From assembly GCA_017457865.1 (NCBI GenBank), contig JAFTGN010000080.1:1-39909 (forward strand): 39,909 bases of DNA, read 5' to 3'. Under the pieces are notes generated by a model. That model saw nothing but the letters and a program-made list of their open reading frames with translations. It ran no database searches and was not told where the DNA came from. The stretch is from Lachnospiraceae bacterium (GTDB lineage: Bacteria; Bacillota; Clostridia; Lachnospirales; Lachnospiraceae). The translations under genes and the position numbers were made by a program. Below are positions 6,405 to 16,216 of this stretch, piece after piece; the first letter of the stretch is position 1, and each line of letters starts with the position of its first letter.

Positions 6405-6429
6405 GATATAGATTTGGGGAGAAATGATT

Positions 6430-9000
6430 ATGCAAAATTTGGTGTTGGGCATGCTTGCCCATGTAGATGCGGGAAAAACCACACTGTCAGAAGCGATTTT
6501 ATATAAGACAAAGACCATTCAGAAGTTTGGACGGGTGGACAAGGGAGATACCTTTCTGGATACAGATGCCATGGAACGGCAGAGGGGCATCACCATTTTT
6601 TCCAAGCAGGCACAGTTAGAAATCGGAGGCAGACCGGTGACACTGCTTGACACGCCGGGACATATTGATTTTTCCGCAGAGATGGAGCGTACCTTGCAGG
6701 TACTGGACTATGCCATCCTGATCATCAGCGGTGCAGATGGGGTCCAGAGCCATACGGCTACCCTTTGGAAACTGCTGGCACGGTATCAGGTACCGGTATT
6801 TTTGTTTGTGAATAAGATGGACCAGCCGGGCACTGACCGTGGTCGTTTGATGGAGGAATTACACCACAAGCTGTCCGGCTATGTGACGGATTTTTCCTAT
6901 CCGGATTATGAAGAAATTGCCCTGGGGGATGAGGCAGTCATGGAACATTATCTGGAAAGCGGGGAGATTTCCGATGAGGAAATTGCCGGGATGGTGGCAA
7001 AGAGACAGCTGTTCCCCTGCTTTTTTGGCTCTGCGTTGAAAGATCAGGGAGTCAAGGCCTTTTTAGAGGCACTGCCCCGGTACGTAACAGAGAAGACCTA
7101 TCCGGAAGACTTTGGGGCTCGAGCCTTCAAAATATCCAGAGATGAACAGGGCAATCGGCTGACCTGGTTGAAAGTGACGGGTGGAACCCTCACTGGACGG
7201 ATGCAGATCACGGAAACCGAGAAGGTGAACCAGATCCGGGTATACTCAGGAGAAAAATATAAGCCGGTACAGGCAGTTGCGGCAGGAGGGGTCTGTGCGG
7301 TTACCGGACTGGAGGAAAGCCGTCCGGGTGATTCGTTTGGAGTGGACGCACCATCTCTGATCCCTATGCTGGCACCGGTGCTGACCTATCAGTTGCAGCT
7401 GCCGGAGGGAATGGATGCCATGCAGATGCTGCCTAAACTGCGTCAGCTGGAAGAAGAAGACCCTCAGCTGCATATTTTGTGGAGTGAATTGACCAGAGAA
7501 ATCCAGATTCAGGTCATGGGGGCAGTGCAGATTGAAATTTTGCAGACCATGATCCGGGAACGGTTTGGAGTGGATGTGACCTTTGGAACCGGCAGTATTA
7601 TATATAAGGAAACCATTGCTTCTGTGGTGGAAGGAGTGGGACATTTTGAGCCCCTGCGCCACTATGCGGAAGTCCACCTGCTGTTGGAGCCGGGAGAACC
7701 GGGCAGCGGCATGGAGTATGTGCTGGATTGCAGTGAGGATGTGCTGGATCGGAACTGGCAGCGGCTGATCCTGACCCATTTATATGAACGAACCCACAGA
7801 GGGGTTCTGACAGGTGCGCCACTGACCGATGTGCGGATTTCCGTGGTGGCAGGGCGCGCCCATCCCAAGCATACAGAAGGGGGAGATTTCAGACAGGCCA
7901 CTTACCGGGCAGTCCGTCAGGGACTCATGCAGGCAGAATCTGTATTATTAGAACCGGTGTATGGGTTTGAAATGGAACTGCCCCGGAGCGCAGTGGGACG
8001 TGCTATGATGGATCTGGAACGGATGAATGGTGCCTTTACATTAGAAGAAATGGGAACCACAGAGGAAAGCCGGATCACCGGTACAGTGCCGGTGGCATCT
8101 TTTGGCACATATCAGACGGAATTTGTGGCATACACCAGAGGACAGGGCAGGCTGTCTGTACAGATGGCAGGCTACCAGCCCTGCCACAACACAGAAGAAG
8201 TGGTGGCAGCTTCCGGCTATGAGCCGGAACGGGATACGCTAAATACAGCAGATTCCGTCTTCTGCTCTCACGGGGCAGGGGTGGTGGTACCGTGGGAGAA
8301 AGTTTATGACCATATGCATGTGGAAAGTGTGTTGGAGCGGAGACAGCAGACGGGCAGCAGTGACATTTCCATTACCTCTATGGGACAAAGCCGTACCGTT
8401 TCGGATGTGGCATTGGGCACGGAAGAAGTGGATGATATCATCAGCCGTACCTTTTATGCCAACAGCCGCAGCCAGGAAGAAGTGCGCAAATCCCTGCATC
8501 AGAAACGGATGGCAGAGCGGCAGACCGCTACATATAAGGGAAAAGAGCGTTCTATCAACGGAGCAAAAACCTACCTGTTGGTGGACGGTTATAACATCAT
8601 CTTTGCATGGAAAGAACTTGCCGAACTGGCAAAAGACAATATAGACGGAGCCAGAGGCAGACTACTGGATATTTTGTGCAACTATCAGGCCATGAAAGGC
8701 TGTGAAGTCATCGTCATTTTCGATGCTTACCGGTTGCAGGGGCACCCCACAGAGCAGTACGATTACCACAACATTCACGTGATCTTTACAAAAGAAGCGG
8801 AAACCGCTGACCAGTACATTGAAAAATTTGCCCACGAAAAGGGCCATCAGTACCACATTCGGGTGGCCACGTCCGATGGTTTAGAGCAGATCATCATCCG
8901 TGGCGCCGGCTGCTATCTGGTATCGGCCAGAGAGTTCGAGGCAGAAGTGAAAGCATCAGAACAGCAGCTGCGGGAAGACTATCTGGGGCGGACGTATTAA
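6430..9000 (+). CDS. Tet(M)-like translational GTPase fused to a C-terminal Rae1/YacP-type NYN ribonuclease
   Basis: The ATG at 6430 lies eight bases past GGGGAG; the in-frame ATG at 6424 is only two bases from it and is less likely. Residues 1-650 match the EF-G/Tet(M) ribosomal-protection family: G1 AHVDAGKT (10-17), switch-1 RGITIF, G3 DTPGH (74-78), G4 NKMD (128-131), then the EF-G-like domains with the loop SFGTYQTEFVAYTRG. Residues about 715-856 match Rae1 (YacP), the Bacillus endonuclease that cuts mRNA in the ribosomal A site: LLVDGYN, VIFDAYR, FTKEAETADQYIEK and VATSDGLEQ, with probable catalytic acids D719, D765, D794 and D816. Known Rae1 is a free protein of about 170 residues. Here the GTPase could deliver the nuclease to the A site, which is inference. 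Tetracycline resistance cannot be deduced. Confidence 0.88.
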   Translation: MQNLVLGMLAHVDAGKTTLSEAILYKTKTIQKFGRVDKGDTFLDTDAMERQRGITIFSKQAQLEIGGRPVTLLDTPGHIDFSAEMERTLQVLDYAILIISGADGVQSHTATLWKLLARYQVPVFLFVNKMDQPGTDRGRLMEELHHKLSGYVTDFSYPDYEEIALGDEAVMEHYLESGEISDEEIAGMVAKRQLFPCFFGSALKDQGVKAFLEALPRYVTEKTYPEDFGARAFKISRDEQGNRLTWLKVTGGTLTGRMQITETEKVNQIRVYSGEKYKPVQAVAAGGVCAVTGLEESRPGDSFGVDAPSLIPMLAPVLTYQLQLPEGMDAMQMLPKLRQLEEEDPQLHILWSELTREIQIQVMGAVQIEILQTMIRERFGVDVTFGTGSIIYKETIASVVEGVGHFEPLRHYAEVHLLLEPGEPGSGMEYVLDCSEDVLDRNWQRLILTHLYERTHRGVLTGAPLTDVRISVVAGRAHPKHTEGGDFRQATYRAVRQGLMQAESVLLEPVYGFEMELPRSAVGRAMMDLERMNGAFTLEEMGTTEESRITGTVPVASFGTYQTEFVAYTRGQGRLSVQMAGYQPCHNTEEVVAASGYEPERDTLNTADSVFCSHGAGVVVPWEKVYDHMHVESVLERRQQTGSSDISITSMGQSRTVSDVALGTEEVDDIISRTFYANSRSQEEVRKSLHQKRMAERQTATYKGKERSINGAKTYLLVDGYNIIFAWKELAELAKDNIDGARGRLLDILCNYQAMKGCEVIVIFDAYRLQGHPTEQYDYHNIHVIFTKEAETADQYIEKFAHEKGHQYHIRVATSDGLEQIIIRGAGCYLVSAREFEAEVKASEQQLREDYLGRTY

Positions 9001-9034: not shown

Positions 9035-9063
9035 TTGCTTTTGCAGTAGTTTGGTGGTATGAT
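9035..9063 (+). promoter_or_regulatory. SigA promoter of the toxin-antitoxin-chaperone operon
   Basis: TTGCTT (9035-9040) and TATGAT (9058-9063) are 17 bp apart. Transcription should begin near 9070. That makes the ATG at 9072 nearly leaderless and favours the ATG at 9123 as the toxin start. Confidence 0.6.
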
Positions 9064-9122
9064 TCAAATACATGGAGAAAGCGTGTAAGTTATGCCTGAA
9101 TGATGTGTGGATTGGGAAGAAT

Positions 9123-9755
9123 ATGGAAAAATATAATGAGAATCAAAGAAGTAGTTCCATGGTCAGGATCAAAGGGTATCATGGCACATGCTCTTTTGCA
9201 CAGGAAAGCATAGAGAGATATGGACTGGATCCGAAAAAAACAAAAAAGAGATCAGATCACTGGCTGGGGCAGGGGGTTTACTTTTTTTTACAGCAAGACC
9301 AGGCACGATGGTGGGCAGAGGATATAGCGGGAAAGTATTGGAATCACGGCTCTGTTGCGTTGGTATATGGTGCGGATATTGTGGCGGATCGAAAATATGT
9401 GAAGGATTTTAGGGAATATGAGGACGTGGCACAATTTCAGAAATGGGCTGTAGAGTTACTCAATTCTTTGAATGAAGGTCACGAAGCGAAACCGAAGTTT
9501 ACAACTGAAAAATTCAGGGGACTATTATTTGATTATTATAAAACGGAATATAATATATATGTGATGATAGGATCATTTTCGAAAAATCGTGTGGGGTATG
9601 CATTGTATGATCCAAGAGAGGAAGAGTTGCAGTTACAAAAGGCAATTATGAAAACGACAGGCATATATTACCAGGAGGTTCAAGTTTGTGTGTCTAATTC
9701 CGCTTGCATTCAAAATCAGAAAGTAGAATATGTTGGTGAGGTAGAAGTGATATGA
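9123..9755 (+). CDS. CmdT-like ADP-ribosyltransferase-fold toxin
   Basis: I chose ATG 9123 (210 aa) because GGGAAGA precedes it and the promoter lies at 9035-9063; ATG 9072 would add 17 residues. The N-terminal half carries the hallmarks of an ADP-ribosyltransferase fold: YHGTC with H20 to bind NAD, and LGQGVYFF with Y53 about 33 residues later. The C-terminal strand EVQVCVSNSACI follows E185, a candidate catalytic glutamate. The gene overlaps a small acidic protein by four bases, followed by a SecB-like chaperone. This T-A-C order matches CmdTAC, whose CmdT ADP-ribosylates mRNA during phage infection. The family assignment rests on motifs and context, not on a full alignment. The gene is distinctly AT-rich compared with its neighbours, which suggests horizontal acquisition. 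Confidence 0.72.
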   Translation: MEKYNENQRSSSMVRIKGYHGTCSFAQESIERYGLDPKKTKKRSDHWLGQGVYFFLQQDQARWWAEDIAGKYWNHGSVALVYGADIVADRKYVKDFREYEDVAQFQKWAVELLNSLNEGHEAKPKFTTEKFRGLLFDYYKTEYNIYVMIGSFSKNRVGYALYDPREEELQLQKAIMKTTGIYYQEVQVCVSNSACIQNQKVEYVGEVEVI

Positions 9756-9997
9756 AGATCAATCAGGAATTATTCAAAGAATTGTGCGAATTGTATGAGG
9801 TTGAATTTTCGGAACAATATAAAAAGGTGATGCTGGAAGATGAAAATGGGGAAATGAGGGAACTGATACCCGAGGATATAAAAGAGATTATTTCTCCGTA
9901 TATTGAGGTTATCCCATATACTGTGAGACAAAGAGAATTTTGTTTAGAGGAACAGTTGTTTTTTGAAGCTTCAGAGGAACTTCTGATTGCGGCATAA
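9752..9997 (+). CDS. Small acidic antitoxin of the TAC operon (CmdA-like), 81 aa
   Basis: The start ATG 9752 overlaps the toxin's stop (ATGA), so translation is probably coupled. The protein is small and strongly acidic (VMLEDENGEMRELIPEDIKEI), as antitoxins usually are. Its tail is hydrophobic and ends LLIAA. Antitoxins of chaperone-dependent systems carry such a C-terminal chaperone-addiction segment, and the final Ala-Ala resembles an SsrA-type degron read by ClpXP. I do not recognise the sequence family; the role is inferred from size, charge and position between the toxin and the SecB-like gene. Confidence 0.6.
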   Translation: MKINQELFKELCELYEVEFSEQYKKVMLEDENGEMRELIPEDIKEIISPYIEVIPYTVRQREFCLEEQLFFEASEELLIAA

Positions 9998-10007
9998 GGA
10001 GCGTGTC

Positions 10008-10409
10008 ATGGAAATAAAAAACAAGTATCAAAGCCCTTTAAAGATGAAAGAGATCATGATTTTGGAAAGCAGCTTCAGACGCTCAGAAGAAGATATAGAT
10101 CATTTGGAATTGGGATTTCGTCCGGAACGTAAGATAGAAAAGATTGGTGAGGATCAATATAAAATTGAGTTTGAAGTTTATTTGGGAGATGATGAGGAAA
10201 AACTGAGTCTCTATGTAAAGTGTGCGGCGATTTTTGAGACGGAACAGGAGAATATGGGGTTGATTGAACGAAATGCCATTGCTATTATATTTCCTTATGT
10301 AAGAGCCTATATTTCTGCGTTGACGTCACAGCCTGGAATGTCTCCGATTGTCCTTCCCCCGATTAATATTATTGCAATGCTGAATGATGACAGAGGAAAA
10401 AATGAATAA
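10008..10409 (+). CDS. SecB-like chaperone of the TAC operon (CmdC-like), 133 aa
   Basis: ATG 10008 lies six bases past AAGGAG; the in-frame ATG-like codon at 9987 lacks a site. The protein has the SecB layout: an N-terminal strand region (LELGFRPERKIEKIG), paired strands (YKIEFEVYLG and LSLYVKCAAIFE), then the signature FPYVRAYISALTSQPGMSP and LPPINIIAML, equivalent to the FPYxRxxIS and PxNF segments of SecB. Gram-positive bacteria generally lack housekeeping SecB, and solitary SecB-like proteins there usually belong to toxin-antitoxin-chaperone modules. It should hold the antitoxin in a folded, protected state; diversion of the chaperone would free the toxin. Confidence 0.75.
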   Translation: MEIKNKYQSPLKMKEIMILESSFRRSEEDIDHLELGFRPERKIEKIGEDQYKIEFEVYLGDDEEKLSLYVKCAAIFETEQENMGLIERNAIAIIFPYVRAYISALTSQPGMSPIVLPPINIIAMLNDDRGKNE

Positions 10410-10812
10410 TCAGTTTATCAGACATTTATTACAGAGTCATTCAGAGGAAACGCTGGTATCCATCTGTCGCATCTTACAGGAGGCTGGCATAGAACTGTTC
10501 GTGAGAGAAGGAGACAGCCTGGAATTCCACAACCTGCCGATCAATTTGCTGCATCAGGAGAAAGCGGATTTCCTACAGTCCATCACCTGCGGAAACCTTT
10601 ACGTCAGTGCCGCAGACTTAGAGCAGGCATCCCGGCTTGTCAGAGAACAAGGCTATGGGAATACTCTGGTAGACGATCCGATCGTACCGGGTTTACAGAC
10701 AGAATTAGAAAAAGCAGAAGCAGCCTACTATAAAAAACGAAAGTGGCTTTATATTGAGTGCGCAGTGGTGGTAGCAGGCGCACTGTTATATATGCTATAT
10801 AAGAGCTTGTAG
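10402..10812 (+). CDS. DUF2007-like protein with a C-terminal membrane anchor (136 aa)
   Basis: The probable start ATG 10402 lies inside the last codons of the SecB-like gene and follows AGAGGA; two earlier in-frame ATGs at 10384/10387 are possible. Residues 1-90 resemble the DUF2007 'putative signal-transducing' fold (ICRILQEAGIELFVREG, then LYVSAADLEQASRLVREQG). A linker with basic KKRK and one transmembrane helix (LYIECAVVVAGALLYMLY) closes the protein. Its base composition returns to the host average, unlike the three genes before it. It therefore looks like a resident gene next to which the TAC module inserted. A strong terminator follows. Confidence 0.6.
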   Translation: MNNQFIRHLLQSHSEETLVSICRILQEAGIELFVREGDSLEFHNLPINLLHQEKADFLQSITCGNLYVSAADLEQASRLVREQGYGNTLVDDPIVPGLQTELEKAEAAYYKKRKWLYIECAVVVAGALLYMLYKSL

Positions 10813-11261: not shown

Positions 11262-11331
11262 AATGTCAGGCGTACGTTTGTCAAAAGTTTTGCAATGCCC
11301 TCAGTTTACAAGAGGAAAGGAAGGAAACACA

Positions 11332-12879
11332 ATGAAAAAGATAGTTCGCAACATTCTTTTGACTGTTTTGTGTACCACACTCACTGTTGCACTGGGCGCA
11401 TGCGCAGGTAATAAGGAAGAGAAGGACTCCTCCACAGGTTCAAATGCTTCTCAGGCAGAAATAACTGCATCTGTAGACAGTAGTATAGTCATTGGAATTC
11501 CCCAGGACATTGAGGATAGTCTGGATCCACACGTAGCAACGGGGGCAGGTACGAGAGAGGTACTGTTCAATTTATTTGAAGGTTTGGTGAAACCGGACAG
11601 CGATGGAAATCTGAATCCTGCTGTAGCAAGCGCATATCAGATTTCCGATGACGGAAAGACCTATACATTTACACTTCGGGATGGAATTTTATTCCATGAC
11701 GGAAGCGCAGTGACAGTAGAAGACGTGAAATATTCTTTGGAACGCAGTGCGGATACCGGTATGGTACCAGCGCTTTCCGATATCACATCCATTGAAATAC
11801 CGGATGAACATACAGTAGTGATCCGGTTAGCCGAGCAGAATCCGGATTTTCTGACGTATCTGACTACGGCTATCATTCCGGAAGACAATGCCAACCCGGA
11901 AACCAATCCAATCGGTACCGGTCCATATCGCTATGTATCCCGCTCTCCACAGGAGAACATCGTCATGGAGAAGTTTGACGGATACTGGGGAGAACCGGCA
12001 CATATTGAAGATGTGACCTTTCAAGTATGTGCTGACTCTGCTTCTCTTGTAGTAGATATGGAGGCAGGCACCATTGATATGTTCGCCAGAGTGACTTCCG
12101 CACAGGCGGCACAGTTAAGCGACAAGTTCAACATCGAAGAGGGAACCATGAATCTGGTGCAGGCATTGTATCTGAACAATGACAACCAATACTTCTCTGA
12201 TCCACTGGTGCGTCAGGCACTGTGCTATGCAGTGGACAGACAGGCGATTTTGGATTTCGTATCCGATGGCAAGGGTGTGATCATCGGCAGCAGTATGTTC
12301 CCGGCATTTGGCAAGTATTATATAGAAGAACTGGCAGATGTGTATGAGCAGAATATTGACAAGGCAAAGGAACTGCTGGCAGAGGCTGGCTATCCGGATG
12401 GATTCAGCTTTACCATATCTGTACCTTCTAATTATCAGCAGCACATTGACACTGCACAGGTCATTAAGGAACAGCTGAAGGCCATCCATGTGGATGCCCA
12501 GATCGATCTGATCGAGTGGGACAGCTGGTTGAGTGACGTATACACAGACCGAAACTATGATGCCACAGTGATCGGTGTGGATGCTTCTTCTCTGACGGCC
12601 AGAGCATTGTTGGAGCGTTTTACCTCTACTGCATCCAATAACTTCATCAACTATCACAATGAAGACTATGATGCGGCATTTGCCAATGCCATCAATACAG
12701 TAGATGAGGATGAGCAGACAGAATATTATAAGGAATGCGAGCGCATTCTGGCAGAAGATGCTGCCAATGTCTACATACAGGACATTGTAGAGTATGTGGC
12801 ACTGAACAAAAAATATGCCGGATATGAATTCTATCCGCTGTATGTGCAGGATGTAGCAAAATTGTATATCGTAGAATAA
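11332..12879 (+). CDS. Peptide ABC transporter solute-binding lipoprotein (OppA/DppA/NikA family)
   Basis: ATG 11332 follows AAGGAAGG; the upstream extension is rejected. The N terminus is a lipoprotein signal (MKKIVRNILLTVLCTT, lipobox LGAC). The mature 515-aa protein has the SBP_bac_5 (cluster C) signatures: DPHVATGAGTREVLFNLFEG near the N terminus, YTFTLRDGILFHDGSAVTVEDV, and the C-terminal ECERILAEDAANVYIQD. This is the full usual length. It captures oligopeptides or a similar ligand outside the cell and feeds the permease pair encoded directly downstream (20-bp gap). The exact substrate, peptide or a metal chelate such as nickel, cannot be read from the sequence. Confidence 0.9.
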   Translation: MKKIVRNILLTVLCTTLTVALGACAGNKEEKDSSTGSNASQAEITASVDSSIVIGIPQDIEDSLDPHVATGAGTREVLFNLFEGLVKPDSDGNLNPAVASAYQISDDGKTYTFTLRDGILFHDGSAVTVEDVKYSLERSADTGMVPALSDITSIEIPDEHTVVIRLAEQNPDFLTYLTTAIIPEDNANPETNPIGTGPYRYVSRSPQENIVMEKFDGYWGEPAHIEDVTFQVCADSASLVVDMEAGTIDMFARVTSAQAAQLSDKFNIEEGTMNLVQALYLNNDNQYFSDPLVRQALCYAVDRQAILDFVSDGKGVIIGSSMFPAFGKYYIEELADVYEQNIDKAKELLAEAGYPDGFSFTISVPSNYQQHIDTAQVIKEQLKAIHVDAQIDLIEWDSWLSDVYTDRNYDATVIGVDASSLTARALLERFTSTASNNFINYHNEDYDAAFANAINTVDEDEQTEYYKECERILAEDAANVYIQDIVEYVALNKKYAGYEFYPLYVQDVAKLYIVE

Positions 12880-12899
12880 AACTAAAGAGGAGACGGGGA

Positions 12900-13835
12900 A
12901 TGAAATATGCAGTACGAAAAGTCTTAACGATGGGGGTAACGATACTGGTGGTTTCGTTCCTCGTCTTTTTGGCATTTCATATCATTCCGGGTGATCCGGC
13001 ACTGGCAAAGCTGGGGACCCAGGCCACGCCGGAGCAGCTGGAACAGCTGCGGGAGGAAATGGGACTGAATGATCCCCTGCCGGTGCGGTTTGTCCGCTGG
13101 CTTGTGGCATTTGTACAGGGCGACATGGGAACATCCTATAGTTATCAGATGTCCGTGACCCAGATGATCGGAGAAAAGATTCCCATTACACTGACCATGG
13201 GAATGATGGCATTTGGGATGATGGTGGGATTGTCTGTTGTACTGGGCATTTACACGGCCAAGCACAACGGAGGTGTCATAGACCGGGTGATCTGTGTCCT
13301 GAATCAGTTGTTGATGGCCGTTCCCCCATTTTTTTCCGGGATTTTGATTTCTTGGGGACTGGGCCTGATGCTTCATTTGTTTGTACCAGGCAGTTATGTG
13401 TCTTATACGAAAGACAGGGGCGGATTTTTCTATTATCTGCTCTTTCCGGCAGCCGCCATTGCGCTGCCGAAGTGCGCCATGGCAGCCAAGCTTCTTCGGT
13501 CCTCTCTCATAGAGGAACTGAAAAAAGATTATATCCGCACAGCCTTTAGCCGTGGCAATACGGTAAATGGGGTGCTGTATGCCCATGCGTTGAAAAATGC
13601 GCTGATGCCGGTGATTACCTTCTGGGGCATGGCACTGGCGGATATGTTAGCTGGCAGTATTATTGTGGAGCAGGTATTTGGCATTCCGGGCATGGGACGG
13701 ATTTTGCTTACCAGTATCAGCCATCGGGATTATCCGGTGGTACAGGCGATCATTGTGCTGATTGCAGTCTGGGTGATCGTCATCAATACGCTGGTGGATT
13801 TGATTTATAAACTGGTAGACCCCAGAATTTCGTGA
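12900..13835 (+). CDS. Peptide/nickel ABC transporter permease, OppB/DppB type
   Basis: The 311-residue protein begins MKYAVRKVLTMGVTILVVSF, after GAGGAGACGGGGA. It has the standard features of the DppB family: the N-terminal motif FHIIPGDPALAKLG, six predicted membrane helices, and the EAA-type cytoplasmic loop DYIRTAFSRGNTVNGVLYAHA followed by ALKNALMPVITFWG. The loop docks onto the ATPases. Full length and no defects are visible. It is the second gene of a five-gene operon and overlaps the next coding frame's leader closely. Confidence 0.92.
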   Translation: MKYAVRKVLTMGVTILVVSFLVFLAFHIIPGDPALAKLGTQATPEQLEQLREEMGLNDPLPVRFVRWLVAFVQGDMGTSYSYQMSVTQMIGEKIPITLTMGMMAFGMMVGLSVVLGIYTAKHNGGVIDRVICVLNQLLMAVPPFFSGILISWGLGLMLHLFVPGSYVSYTKDRGGFFYYLLFPAAAIALPKCAMAAKLLRSSLIEELKKDYIRTAFSRGNTVNGVLYAHALKNALMPVITFWGMALADMLAGSIIVEQVFGIPGMGRILLTSISHRDYPVVQAIIVLIAVWVIVINTLVDLIYKLVDPRIS

Positions 13836-13843
13836 GGTGGCAG

Positions 13844-14647
13844 ATGAAGAAGAAATACAATTACAATCTGATGACAGGCGGAATTCTGACAGTTACAATG
13901 TTGCTGCTGATTCTCATTAGTGTATTTTATGTGCCTTATGATCCGGACAAAATGGACAGTACAGCGAAACTGGCAAAGGCTTCCTTTCATCACATCATGG
14001 GCTGTGACCAGTTTGGACGGGATATATTCAGCCGTGTGATGAAAGGATGTGGCAATACTTTTTTTGTGGCAGCAGGCACTGTGTGGATGGGAACCGTGTT
14101 TGGCATCCTGATCGGTTCCTTTACCGGTTATTACGGTGGCATTCTGGATGAGGTGCTGATGCGGATCAATGATACTATTTTTGCCTTTCCCAGTATCCTG
14201 CTGGCGCTGGTGTTTGTCAGCCTCCTTGGGGGAGGTAAGTATCAGATCATTCTGGCACTTGGTATTGCCTTTATTCCCAGCTTTGCCAGAATCGTCCGCA
14301 GTGAGTTTATCCGCTGTCGGGAACTGGATTATGTGAAAAGTGCAAGGTTGTCCGGGGCAGGCAGTCTGCGGATCATGTTTGTCCATATTTTGCCCAATAC
14401 ACGGAATGTGCTGTTTTCTGCCATTTTGATCGGGTTTAACAATGCAGTGCTGGCAGAATCCGGCATGAGCTTTTTAGGCATCGGGGTACAGCCGCCGGAA
14501 GCCAGTCTGGGACGGATGATGTCGGAGGCACAGACCTATCTTTTGACCAGACCGTCTATGGCGCTGTTTCCGGGATTGATGATTTTGTGGATGGTATTGG
14601 GTTTTGCGCTGCTTGGAGAGGGGATCTCTGAACGGCAGGCAGGATAA
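13844..14647 (+). CDS. Peptide/nickel ABC transporter permease, OppC/DppC type
   Basis: ATG 13844 follows GAGGTGG; the GTG at 13832 sits within that site and is not the start. The protein of 267 residues starts with one helix (GILTVTMLLLILISVFYVPY), then the family motif HIMGCDQFGRDIFSRVMKG, and carries the EAA loop ELDYVKSARLSGAGSLRIM followed by HILPN. The conserved GMSFLGIGVQPPEASLG segment of DppC is present near the C terminus. It pairs with the OppB-type subunit to form the membrane channel. Confidence 0.92.
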   Translation: MKKKYNYNLMTGGILTVTMLLLILISVFYVPYDPDKMDSTAKLAKASFHHIMGCDQFGRDIFSRVMKGCGNTFFVAAGTVWMGTVFGILIGSFTGYYGGILDEVLMRINDTIFAFPSILLALVFVSLLGGGKYQIILALGIAFIPSFARIVRSEFIRCRELDYVKSARLSGAGSLRIMFVHILPNTRNVLFSAILIGFNNAVLAESGMSFLGIGVQPPEASLGRMMSEAQTYLLTRPSMALFPGLMILWMVLGFALLGEGISERQAG

Positions 14648-14657
14648 GGAGGAAGAT

Positions 14658-15455
14658 ATGCTGCTGGAAGTGAAAAATTTACAGATTGCATTTCATGATC
14701 ACAGCCTGCCGGAAACGGTGGTCCATGATTTTAACCTGACCATGGAGGCAGGGGAGATCGTAGGCATTGTAGGAGAGTCCGGTTCCGGCAAATCCATGTC
14801 TGCCATGGCCATTGCAGGTTTGCTGTCCAGACATGATATGACCAAGGAGGGCAAATGTCTCTTTCAGGGGGTGGATACGCTCCGGTGCAGCAGACAGGAA
14901 CTGCGGAAATTACAGGGCAATGAAATGGGAATTATTTTTCAGGAACCTATGACTTCCTTAAATCCACTGAAGAAGATTGGCTGGCAGGTAGAGGAAAGTC
15001 TGCGGCTCCATACCGATCTGGGCAAAACGGAGCGGAAGGAACGGGCATTGCAGGCGCTTGCAGAAGCAGAACTGCCAAATCCGGAACGGGTTTATTCCCT
15101 CTATCCCCACAATTTGTCCGGTGGTATGAGACAAAGGGTAATGATCGCTGCTGCCATGATTGCCAGACCAAAGCTGCTCATTGCGGATGAACCTACTACT
15201 TCACTAGATGTGACCATACAGGCACAGATTGTAAAATTGCTGCAAAAATTCAGCAGAGAAAAAGGCATGGCGGTGCTGTTCATCTCCCATGATCTGAGTC
15301 TGGTGAGACAGCTGTGCGGCCGTGTACTGGTGATGCAGAAAGGATATGTGGTAGAACAGGGAGACATGGAAACGGTATTTGAACATCCGGTGCATCCCTA
15401 TACACAGAAGTTATTGGCGGCGATCCCTAAGATACCGGGGCAAGGAGGCGTGTGA
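14658..15455 (+). CDS. Peptide ABC transporter ATP-binding protein, OppD/DppD type
   Basis: ATG 14658 follows AAGGAGGA. The 265-aa ATPase has Walker A GESGSGKS, the Q-loop [10 protein letters not shown], the ABC signature LSGGMRQR, Walker [13 protein letters not shown] and the H-loop SHDLS. The C-terminal [15 protein letters not shown] is the start of the oligopeptide-transporter-specific (oligo_HPY) region, cut short as in compact NikD/DppD forms. It works as a heterodimer with the next gene product, with whose frame it just touches (TGATG). Confidence 0.92.
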
Positions 15456-16216
15456 TGCAGGAGAACGTGTTAGAAGTGCGCCATGTGAATGGATTTTACA
15501 AAGAGCAGTCCGTGCAAAATGGCATCCGCCGTCTGTTTGGCAGAGAAGGGCAGCGTGTGCAGGTACTCCATGACATTTCCTTTTTCATCGGAAAAGGGGA
15601 GGTGGTGGGACTGGTAGGGGAAAGCGGTTGTGGAAAAACCACCTTATCCAAGGCCATTTTAGGCTTTTTAAAAGACCGGGAAGGGGAAATCTGCCACCAG
15701 ACCAAACATCCCCAGATGGTCTTTCAGGATCCATACAGTGCCTTAAATCCGGTAAAAAAGATTGGCTGGATCATGGAAGAACCATTGAAAAACTATACCA
15801 AATTAGACAGACAGGCACGCAGGGAAAAGGTACTGGAAATGCTGCAAAATGTAGGATTGGAAGCGGACATGGCAGACCGGTATCCCAGACAGCTGTCCGG
15901 CGGCCAGCGGCAGCGTGTGAACATTGGCACTGCCCTCATGTTAGAGCCGGGATTGCTGATTGCGGATGAGCCGGTTTCCGCATTGGATGTGACCATACAG
16001 GCACAGATCATGGAATTGTTTCAGGAATTACAGCAGAAACTGCAGTTGTCTGTTTTGTTTATTTCTCATGACCTGCGGGTGGTGTATCAGATGTGCGACC
16101 GGGTACTGATCATGAAAGAAGGCAGGATCGTGGAAGAAGGCACTGTGGAAGAAGTGTACCGGCATCCAAAGCATGAGTATACAAAATTGCTGTTGGCGTC
16201 TGCCGGCATATCTTAA
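15455..16216 (+). CDS. Peptide ABC transporter ATP-binding protein, OppF/DppF type
   Basis: ATG 15455 follows AAGGAGG and overlaps the preceding stop; a GTG three bases earlier is possible. The 253-residue protein has Walker A GESGCGKT, the Q-loop [10 protein letters not shown], the signature LSGGQRQR, Walker [13 protein letters not shown] and the H-loop SHDLR, then [13 protein letters not shown]. It completes an SBP-permease-permease-ATPase-ATPase operon, the canonical order for oligopeptide or nickel importers. No terminator hairpin is evident before spoVT. Confidence 0.92.

What the first reader, a model, noticed from the sequence alone, without database searches (positions are those of the whole stretch)
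9035..10409. CmdTAC-like toxin-antitoxin-chaperone operon in a Gram-positive gut bacterium
Three overlapping AT-rich genes behind their own promoter encode an ADP-ribosyltransferase-fold protein (YHGT, GVYFF), an 81-aa acidic protein and a SecB-like chaperone. Gram-positives normally lack SecB, so a SecB-like gene beside a toxin points to a TAC module. The T-A-C order and ART toxin match CmdTAC, the E. coli anti-phage system whose toxin ADP-ribosylates mRNA. The composition drop at both edges suggests transfer as a unit. A Firmicute version with such diverged sequences may be undescribed.
Basis: partly seen in the sequence, partly recalled or inferred. Interest (0 to 1): 0.88.

Follow-up and report, generated by a model that had tools for sequence, protein, structure and literature searches.

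The report
CmdTAC-type toxin operon in Lachnospiraceae
A bacterium of the family Lachnospiraceae carries a three-gene operon (a predicted ADP-ribosylating toxin, an antitoxin with a self-destruct tail, and a chaperone that probably guards that tail) with the layout and parts of a known anti-virus system; it is a new, diverged member of a family already reported from Gram-positive bacteria.

Summary
Window 9123-10409 carries toxin (T), antitoxin (A) and SecB-like chaperone (C) genes, T/A overlapping by 4 nt, with low GC. C is SecB by Pfam and PD-T4-9_C (CmdC) by PADLOC (E 4e-18). T alone matches PD-T4-9_A only weakly (0.014), but 28 of 34 aligned T do at 1e-3, all 34 share the H and Y of the ADP-ribosyltransferase signature, and 32, the window's included, have Gln third. 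A ends LIAA, ssrA-like, as CmdA ends LAA. T-A-C recurs in 15 further Lachnospiraceae-type loci with mostly different flanks, and in viral contigs, Streptococcus satellite phages and plasmids. Most likely it is a CmdTAC-type module: C shields the A tail; a phage protein titrates C; ClpXP destroys A; freed T modifies RNA and blocks translation. Sensing, target and defence are inferred. The novelty claim fails: CmdTAC in Gram-positives is in print. Side findings: clade-specific Ala-Cys antitoxin tails resembling host tmRNA tags; a CmdT-like gene beside 18 of 46 sampled Bacillota SecB genes; CmdT-like genes without a chaperone.

The parts
9035..9063 (+). putative promoter: -35 TTGCTT 9035-9040, 17-nt spacer, -10 TATGAT 9058-9063 preceded by TGG (extended -10)
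   Evidence: read; T9036, T9055, G9056, T9058, A9059 and T9063 are invariant in 16 aligned upstream regions; not found by the consensus scan, and the short motif alone is not above chance
9123..9755 (+). toxin T, CmdT-like predicted ADP-ribosyltransferase (210 aa; alternative starts 9072 or 9159)
   Evidence: phrog_14664 E 2.7e-12; PD-T4-9_A E 0.014 for itself, 28 of 34 aligned T at 1e-3, not the window's; tree
9180..9182 (+). predicted catalytic His (YHGT)
   Evidence: invariant in 34 of 34 aligned T; aligns with YHGT of PARP10
9279..9281 (+). predicted catalytic Tyr (GVYFF), by inference the counterpart of CmdT Tyr41
   Evidence: invariant in 34 of 34 aligned T; aligns with GVYF of PARP10; Y41 role from PMC11618068
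9681..9683 (+). predicted third triad residue Gln (EVQVCV)
   Evidence: Q in 32 of 34 aligned T, exceptions L016 and L020; invariant in the 35 rows of A7, from which L016 and L020 had been left out
9752..9997 (+). antitoxin A, CmdA-like by position and tail (81 aa)
   Evidence: N-terminal half aligns with 15 Lachnospiraceae-type antitoxins; no family hit in four libraries
9983..9994 (+). LIAA, predicted ClpXP degron at the antitoxin C-terminus
   Evidence: 40 of 50 genes preceding SecB-like genes end A[AC] against 3 of 384 background ORFs; own tmRNA tag is ADENLAFAA
10008..10409 (+). chaperone C, SecB-like, CmdC-like (133 aa)
   Evidence: PF02556 31.5 bits, cut-off 26; PD-T4-9_C E 4.3e-18; profile of 24 C matches solved SecB 1fx3 at 1.1e-13 and Rv1957 5mtw_C at 0.0018

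Best explanation
It is a CmdTAC-type toxin-antitoxin-chaperone module, most likely an abortive-infection anti-phage system. T is an ADP-ribosyltransferase with an H-Y-Q active site; A folds and blocks T through its N-terminal part and ends in an ssrA-like LIAA tail; C is a SecB-type chaperone that holds A and hides its tail from ClpXP. During phage infection a phage protein (in E. coli the T4 major capsid protein) draws C away, ClpXP destroys A, and freed T ADP-ribosylates RNA (in E. coli adenines of GA in mRNA), stopping translation and phage production. Shown here: gene order, family of C, conserved H, Y and Q of T, the antitoxin tail, recurrence as a unit with mostly different flanks, and a ClpX gene and a tmRNA tag in the same genome. 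Inferred: fold of T, neutralisation, shielding, trigger, RNA target and defence. I hold CmdTAC-type membership at about 0.9 and mRNA as the target at about 0.6.
For: C: (24 of 24 C match PD-T4-9_C). T: 28 of 34 match PD-T4-9_A; 13 of 34 match PARP PF00644 at 0.01, 1 the exotoxin A catalytic domain. A tail: and CmdA ends LAA (PMC11618068 section 6). Conserved unit: (6 of 120 locus pairs share any flanking gene, none of the six with the window; GC below flanks in 15 of 16 loci, equal in L043). Mobile carriage: with translations. Tree: window T groups with the 15 Lachnospiraceae-type T (99/97; unrooted). One PF02556 match in its genome; ClpX present.
Against: The window T itself does not match PD-T4-9_A at 1e-3 and has no Pfam hit. 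The profile match to PARP10 is weak (0.029). No predicted structure could be made. E. coli CmdTAC itself was not retrieved, so no direct alignment was made. A has no family hit. CmdT-like T without C exist: of the 37 loci, 23 have C beside T, 6 are cut within or shortly after T, and 8 show no C. No expression, toxicity or phage data exist. No empty site was found, and I did not search T in the two other genomes of the genus.
Confidence: 0.8

Rival explanations
1. A TAC module of the same build whose toxin modifies another target (a protein, tRNA, rRNA or DNA) rather than mRNA.
For: T is at most 41% identical to its nearest relatives in the tree set and matches the CmdT model only weakly; ADP-ribosyltransferases differ widely in substrate (established knowledge). 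No substrate residues could be checked.
Against: 28 of 34 aligned T fall under the PD-T4-9_A models at 1e-3.
Confidence: 0.3
2. A selfish or stress-response toxin-antitoxin module that keeps itself in the genome and does not defend against phage.
For: Related loci lie on plasmids, viral contigs and satellite phages; no defence gene was recognised by Pfam among ten window genes scanned (most genes beyond position 16216 were not scanned).
Against: The closest characterised relative is anti-phage (PMC11618068, PMC9519451); carriage by prophages and satellites also fits exclusion of rival phages.
Confidence: 0.2
3. C is an export chaperone of the SecB kind that happens to sit beside two unrelated genes.
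For: C passes the Pfam SecB cut-off.
Against: It scores far below the TIGR00809 secB equivalog cut-off (32 against 102.8 bits) and sits behind T and A in 15 other loci.
Confidence: 0.03
4. A decayed, non-functional copy.
For: A run of eight T directly behind the Tyr codon (9282-9289) and an uncertain N-terminus of T.
Against: All three frames are open, H, Y and Q are intact, and start signals are conserved.
Confidence: 0.05

Closest known systems
CmdTAC (PD-T4-9) of E. coli ECOR22
   Same: T-A-C order; toxin with the H and Y, and a third residue allowed by HY-[E,D,Q]; antitoxin ending in a ClpXP-like tail (LAA there, LIAA here); SecB-like chaperone matching its model
   Different: window T scores only 0.014 against the PD-T4-9_A model; 81-aa antitoxin with no sequence match; Gram-positive host; trigger and target unknown
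CmdTAC homologues noted in Gram-positive bacteria (PMC11618068 and, in general terms, PMC9519451)
   Same: the same system type in the same broad group of hosts
   Different: no paper in the library holds both words Lachnospiraceae and CmdTAC; I could not see the figures
HigBA1-SecBTA TAC of Mycobacterium tuberculosis
   Same: SecB-like chaperone protects an antitoxin whose C-terminal end is a ClpX degron (PMC8165232 passages)
   Different: its toxin is a ribonuclease (abstract start of PMC9098466 in the listing); here a predicted ADP-ribosyltransferase
MqsRAC
   Same: TAC with anti-phage activity in E. coli (PMC9519451 passages)
   Different: toxin and antitoxin unrelated to CmdTAC according to the same passage

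Membership tests
CmdTAC / PD-T4-9 | three genes in the order toxin, antitoxin, SecB-like chaperone | tested here: met
   repeated in 15 further Lachnospiraceae-type loci
CmdTAC / PD-T4-9 | chaperone matches the CmdC model | tested here: met
   PD-T4-9_C E 4.3e-18; 24 of 24 aligned C at 1e-3
CmdTAC / PD-T4-9 | toxin matches the CmdT model | tested here: inconclusive
   window T 0.014, not at 1e-3; 28 of 34 aligned T at 1e-3
CmdTAC / PD-T4-9 | H-Y-[E,D,Q] triad | tested here: met
   H and Y in 34 of 34, Q in 32 of 34 including the window; by alignment, not structure
CmdTAC / PD-T4-9 | toxin has the ADP-ribosyltransferase fold | tested here: inconclusive
   PF00644 in 13 of 34 T at 0.01, none for the window; PARP10 0.029 by profile; structure prediction unavailable
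CmdTAC / PD-T4-9 | antitoxin ends in a ClpXP-like tail | tested here: met
   LIAA; 40 of 50 genes preceding SecB-like genes end A[AC]; by sequence only
CmdTAC / PD-T4-9 | antitoxin with N-terminal helices and a long unstructured tail | not tested
   no structure prediction was possible
CmdTAC / PD-T4-9 | toxic only with antitoxin, rescued by chaperone | not testable with these tools
   needs expression
CmdTAC / PD-T4-9 | ADP-ribosylates mRNA; senses capsid protein; stops phage | not testable with these tools
   needs biochemistry and phage challenge
canonical export SecB | passes the secB equivalog cut-off | tested here: not met
   TIGR00809 32 bits, cut-off 102.8
HigBA-type TAC | RelE-fold toxin and HTH antitoxin | tested here: not met
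   no Pfam match for T or A up to E 1; by sequence only

The most novel reading that the evidence does not exclude
CmdT-type TACs are a main home of SecB-fold genes in Bacillota, including genes of the kind earlier counted as solitary. Their antitoxins carry tails that imitate the host tmRNA (ssrA) tag; one Lachnospiraceae-type clade ends in Ala-Cys ([DN][FY]A[IVET]AC in 15 of 15 loci) where the host tags found end in Ala-Ala, which could be a tuned, slower degron. CmdT-like toxins without a chaperone, which the tree places among TAC toxins (inner forks weak, root unknown), would show how chaperone dependence is gained or lost.
Probability: 0.4. Interest if true: 0.55.

Novelty: new member of a known kind. 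Interest (0 to 1): 0.35.

Why it matters
CmdTAC is one of few systems reported to ADP-ribosylate mRNA, and the experiments I saw were in E. coli. A diverged Gram-positive clade offers tests of what is general: whether the chaperone senses structural proteins of unrelated phages, whether the target is mRNA, and how an ssrA-like tail on an antitoxin is balanced between chaperone and ClpXP. The natural variants (AA tails, AC tails, chaperone-less) form a ready comparison set.

Tried and rejected
Canonical SecB: rejected. HigBA/MqsRA-type TAC: rejected for the window. The fourth gene 10402-10812 as part of the operon: rejected, since it has flank-like composition, the window shares no flanking gene with the 15 other loci at 1e-8, and it matched only the window's own genome among 79 searched. 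Empty site: not found; the downstream gene gave no match in the two other genomes of the genus (one is 74% complete), and the transporter gene only a weak hit in one. Homology of the partner proteins of chaperone-less T to CmdA-like antitoxins: inconclusive (hhalign probability 12%, E 0.0024). Antitoxin by families or solved structures: nothing useful. T against plasmids: no match at 0.01.

Cautions on counts: the 50 antitoxin tails come from loci gathered through T or C searches, so they are not a random sample; 43 of the 50 have a CmdT-like T by my profile, 7 do not (L027, L029, L030, L031, L032, L034, L093), and for L032 the preceding gene is probably not an antitoxin. Among the 43, 35 end A[AC]. 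The 384 background ORFs are mechanical calls of at least 150 aa from the same loci, so longer than the antitoxins. The binomial value printed treats related loci as independent and is not used. In the SecB-first sample three of the 18 T-positive loci (L135, L136, L138) are near copies from one genus, and the window is one of the 18.

Full report
What is there. Three same-strand genes lie between an EF-G-like gene fused to a YacP-type NYN domain (6424-9000) and, beyond a 136-aa gene (10402-10812), an oligopeptide-type ABC transporter operon (11263-16216). T ends at 9755 and has ATG starts at 9072, 9123 and 9159. Relatives begin just before the YHGT motif and the putative -10 box ends at 9063, so 9123 or 9159 is likelier than 9072. 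A is 9752-9997. C starts at the ATG at 10008 behind AAGGAG. Operon GC is 0.384 against 0.474 in the flanks.

Chaperone. C passes the Pfam SecB cut-off (31.5 against 26 bits) and matches PADLOC PD-T4-9_C at 4.3e-18. It is far below the cut-off of the export SecB equivalog. A profile of 24 C proteins finds solved SecB (1.1e-13) and the M. tuberculosis TAC chaperone Rv1957 (0.0018). It is the one PF02556 match in the genome at 1e-3.

Toxin. The window T alone is hard to place: PD-T4-9_A 0.014, phrog_14664 2.7e-12, no Pfam match up to E 1. Relatives place it. In an alignment of 34 T, H8, W35, G37, G39, Y41 and W52 are invariant and Q175 is present in 32 (numbering from the ATG at 9159; without Q are L016 and L020). 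Of these 34, 28 match PD-T4-9_A PDLC04068 and 22 PDLC04069 at 1e-3, but not the window T; 13 match PARP PF00644, 6 DUF3990, 1 DUF4712 and 1 the exotoxin A catalytic domain at 0.01. The A7 profile finds seven PDB sequences at E up to 1, six of them PARPs; the best is PARP10 (0.029), aligned on YHGT and GVYF. CmdT has an HY-[E,D,Q] triad and a predicted likeness to exotoxin A (PMC11618068 passages). Structure prediction could not be run, so the fold rests on sequence.

Antitoxin and tail. A matches no family. Its N-terminal part aligns with 15 Lachnospiraceae-type antitoxins. Its end, LIAA, is the telling feature: CmdA ends in LAA, a ClpXP signal, like antitoxins of other known TACs (PMC11618068 section 6). 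Among 50 distinct SecB-like genes gathered here, the preceding gene ends AA in 26 and AC in 14; 40 of 50 end A[AC], against 3 of 384 background ORFs. The sample was gathered through T or C and is not random; 43 of the 50 have a CmdT-like T, and 35 of these 43 end A[AC]. The host tmRNA tag is ADENLAFAA. Tags were found in 15 of 16 genomes searched, the sixteenth giving none, and the unstarred tags all end in AA. The tails of the Lachnospiraceae-type antitoxins ([DN][FY]A[IVET]AC, 15 of 15) resemble these tags save the last residue. The genome has two ClpX-family matches over the cut-off.

Relatives. The genome scan gave 37 loci. My profiles find C beside T in 23 of 37; 6 loci (L053, L061, L062, L064, L068, L073) are cut within or shortly after T; 8 show no C (L054, whose T is cut short, L056-L059, L063, L067, L070). 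In 15 loci (L038-L052) T-A-C is complete with A of 78-79 aa. The T tree groups the window with these 15 (99/97; unrooted). Of 120 pairs of these 16 loci 6 share any flanking gene at 1e-8, none of the six involving the window, and operon GC is below the flanks in 15 of 16, equal in L043: the unit seems to move. T-A-C also occurs in viral contigs L022, L023, L025, L026, L035-L037 (T of L036 is truncated), Streptococcus satellite phages Javan245, Javan248 and Javan16, an unverified faecal phage clone, and plasmids of Enterococcus faecalis and Thiodictyon. T is rare: 6 of 295 genomes of the order by sequence, 14 of 295 by phrog_14664 and 13 of 391 of the class by profile, some of them weak hits.

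SecB-first view. PF02556 matches in 391 class genomes and 398 phylum genomes (overlapping samples) give 46 distinct places. A CmdT-like T (E up to 0.01) lies within the 1.5-kb flank in 18 of 46, the window included and three of them near copies; two of the 46 were not found by my own C profile. Of the rest, L133 sits beside a GNAT gene, L118 beside a gene with a sub-threshold RelE match and an HTH/MqsA-like antitoxin; L122, L131 and L160 look RelE/HigB-like by eye only; most others I did not identify. A 2014 review placed Firmicutes SecB sequences largely in the core of solitary SecB (PMC4257090 passages); at least part of such genes are in T-A-C operons.

Mechanism. From CmdTAC (PMC11618068: abstract, sections 6, 12, 34, part 1 of section 41, and passages): CmdA helps fold and neutralises CmdT, CmdC protects CmdA, T4 capsid protein draws CmdC off, CmdA is degraded through ClpP, and CmdT modifies adenine in GA dinucleotides of single-stranded RNA. 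The window has a part for each of these roles. Which phage protein is sensed, and whether the target is mRNA, is inference.

Promoter. A consensus scan found no site before T. Aligned upstream regions of 16 loci share T of a TTG and TG-n-TA-nnn-T columns, and a purine-rich start signal; the window has TTGCTT, 17 nt, TATGAT with TGG before it, at 9035-9063. Alone, TGnTATRAT is not above chance in the window.

Novelty. CmdTAC homologues in Gram-positive species are in print (PMC11618068 passages), and the 2022 paper reports more than half of its systems as abundant in Firmicutes and other phyla (PMC9519451 passages). A search for papers holding both Lachnospiraceae and CmdTAC gave none. One with satellite-phage and TAC terms listed 10 of 43 papers, none of which holds both kinds of term. 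One on TAC, GNAT and SecB gave three papers that I did not open. The 2024 Cell Host and Microbe paper on TAC sensing is not held, so overlap with it is unknown. I file this as a new member of a known kind.

Noticed in passing
L038-L052, antitoxin C-termini: Antitoxins of the Lachnospiraceae-type clade end in Ala-Cys in 15 of 15 loci, while the tmRNA tags found in 14 of their 15 genomes end in Ala-Ala. A terminal Cys in a ClpXP-like tail looks unusual to me.
   Followed up: partly
L056, L057, L058, L059, L061, L063: CmdT-like T followed by a 96-160 aa gene and no SecB-like gene in the locus; their T form one group (98/94) in the tree. L061 ends about 100 nt after the partner gene, so a chaperone there is not excluded.
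   Followed up: partly
L008, L009, L010, L017, L024: Another CmdT-like group with a small gene before T and no SecB-like gene seen; by eye, L024 (and perhaps L009) lies among phage tail genes.
   Followed up: no
L133: SecB-like gene behind a GNAT acetyltransferase gene and a 143-aa gene without Pfam match: a possible TAC with a GNAT toxin.
   Followed up: partly
L027, L029, L030, L031: Viral-contig TAC-like operons with an unrelated ~130-aa first gene (no Pfam match for the one tested, L027) and second genes ending LAA or SAA.
   Followed up: partly
L130, L147, L149, L151, L159: SecB-like genes preceded by a ~200-aa gene ending YAA; the one tested (L149) matches the RAMP superfamily model at 7.9e-6.
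   Followed up: partly
L032, L033: SecB-like gene followed, not preceded, by a 195-aa gene with WLGEGYYFW: gene order seems changed.
   Followed up: no
window 6424-9000: EF-G-like protein (kin of ribosomal protection proteins, from recall) fused to a YacP-type NYN domain.
   Followed up: no
window 9282-9289: Run of eight T directly behind the predicted catalytic Tyr codon of T; could invite slippage.
   Followed up: no
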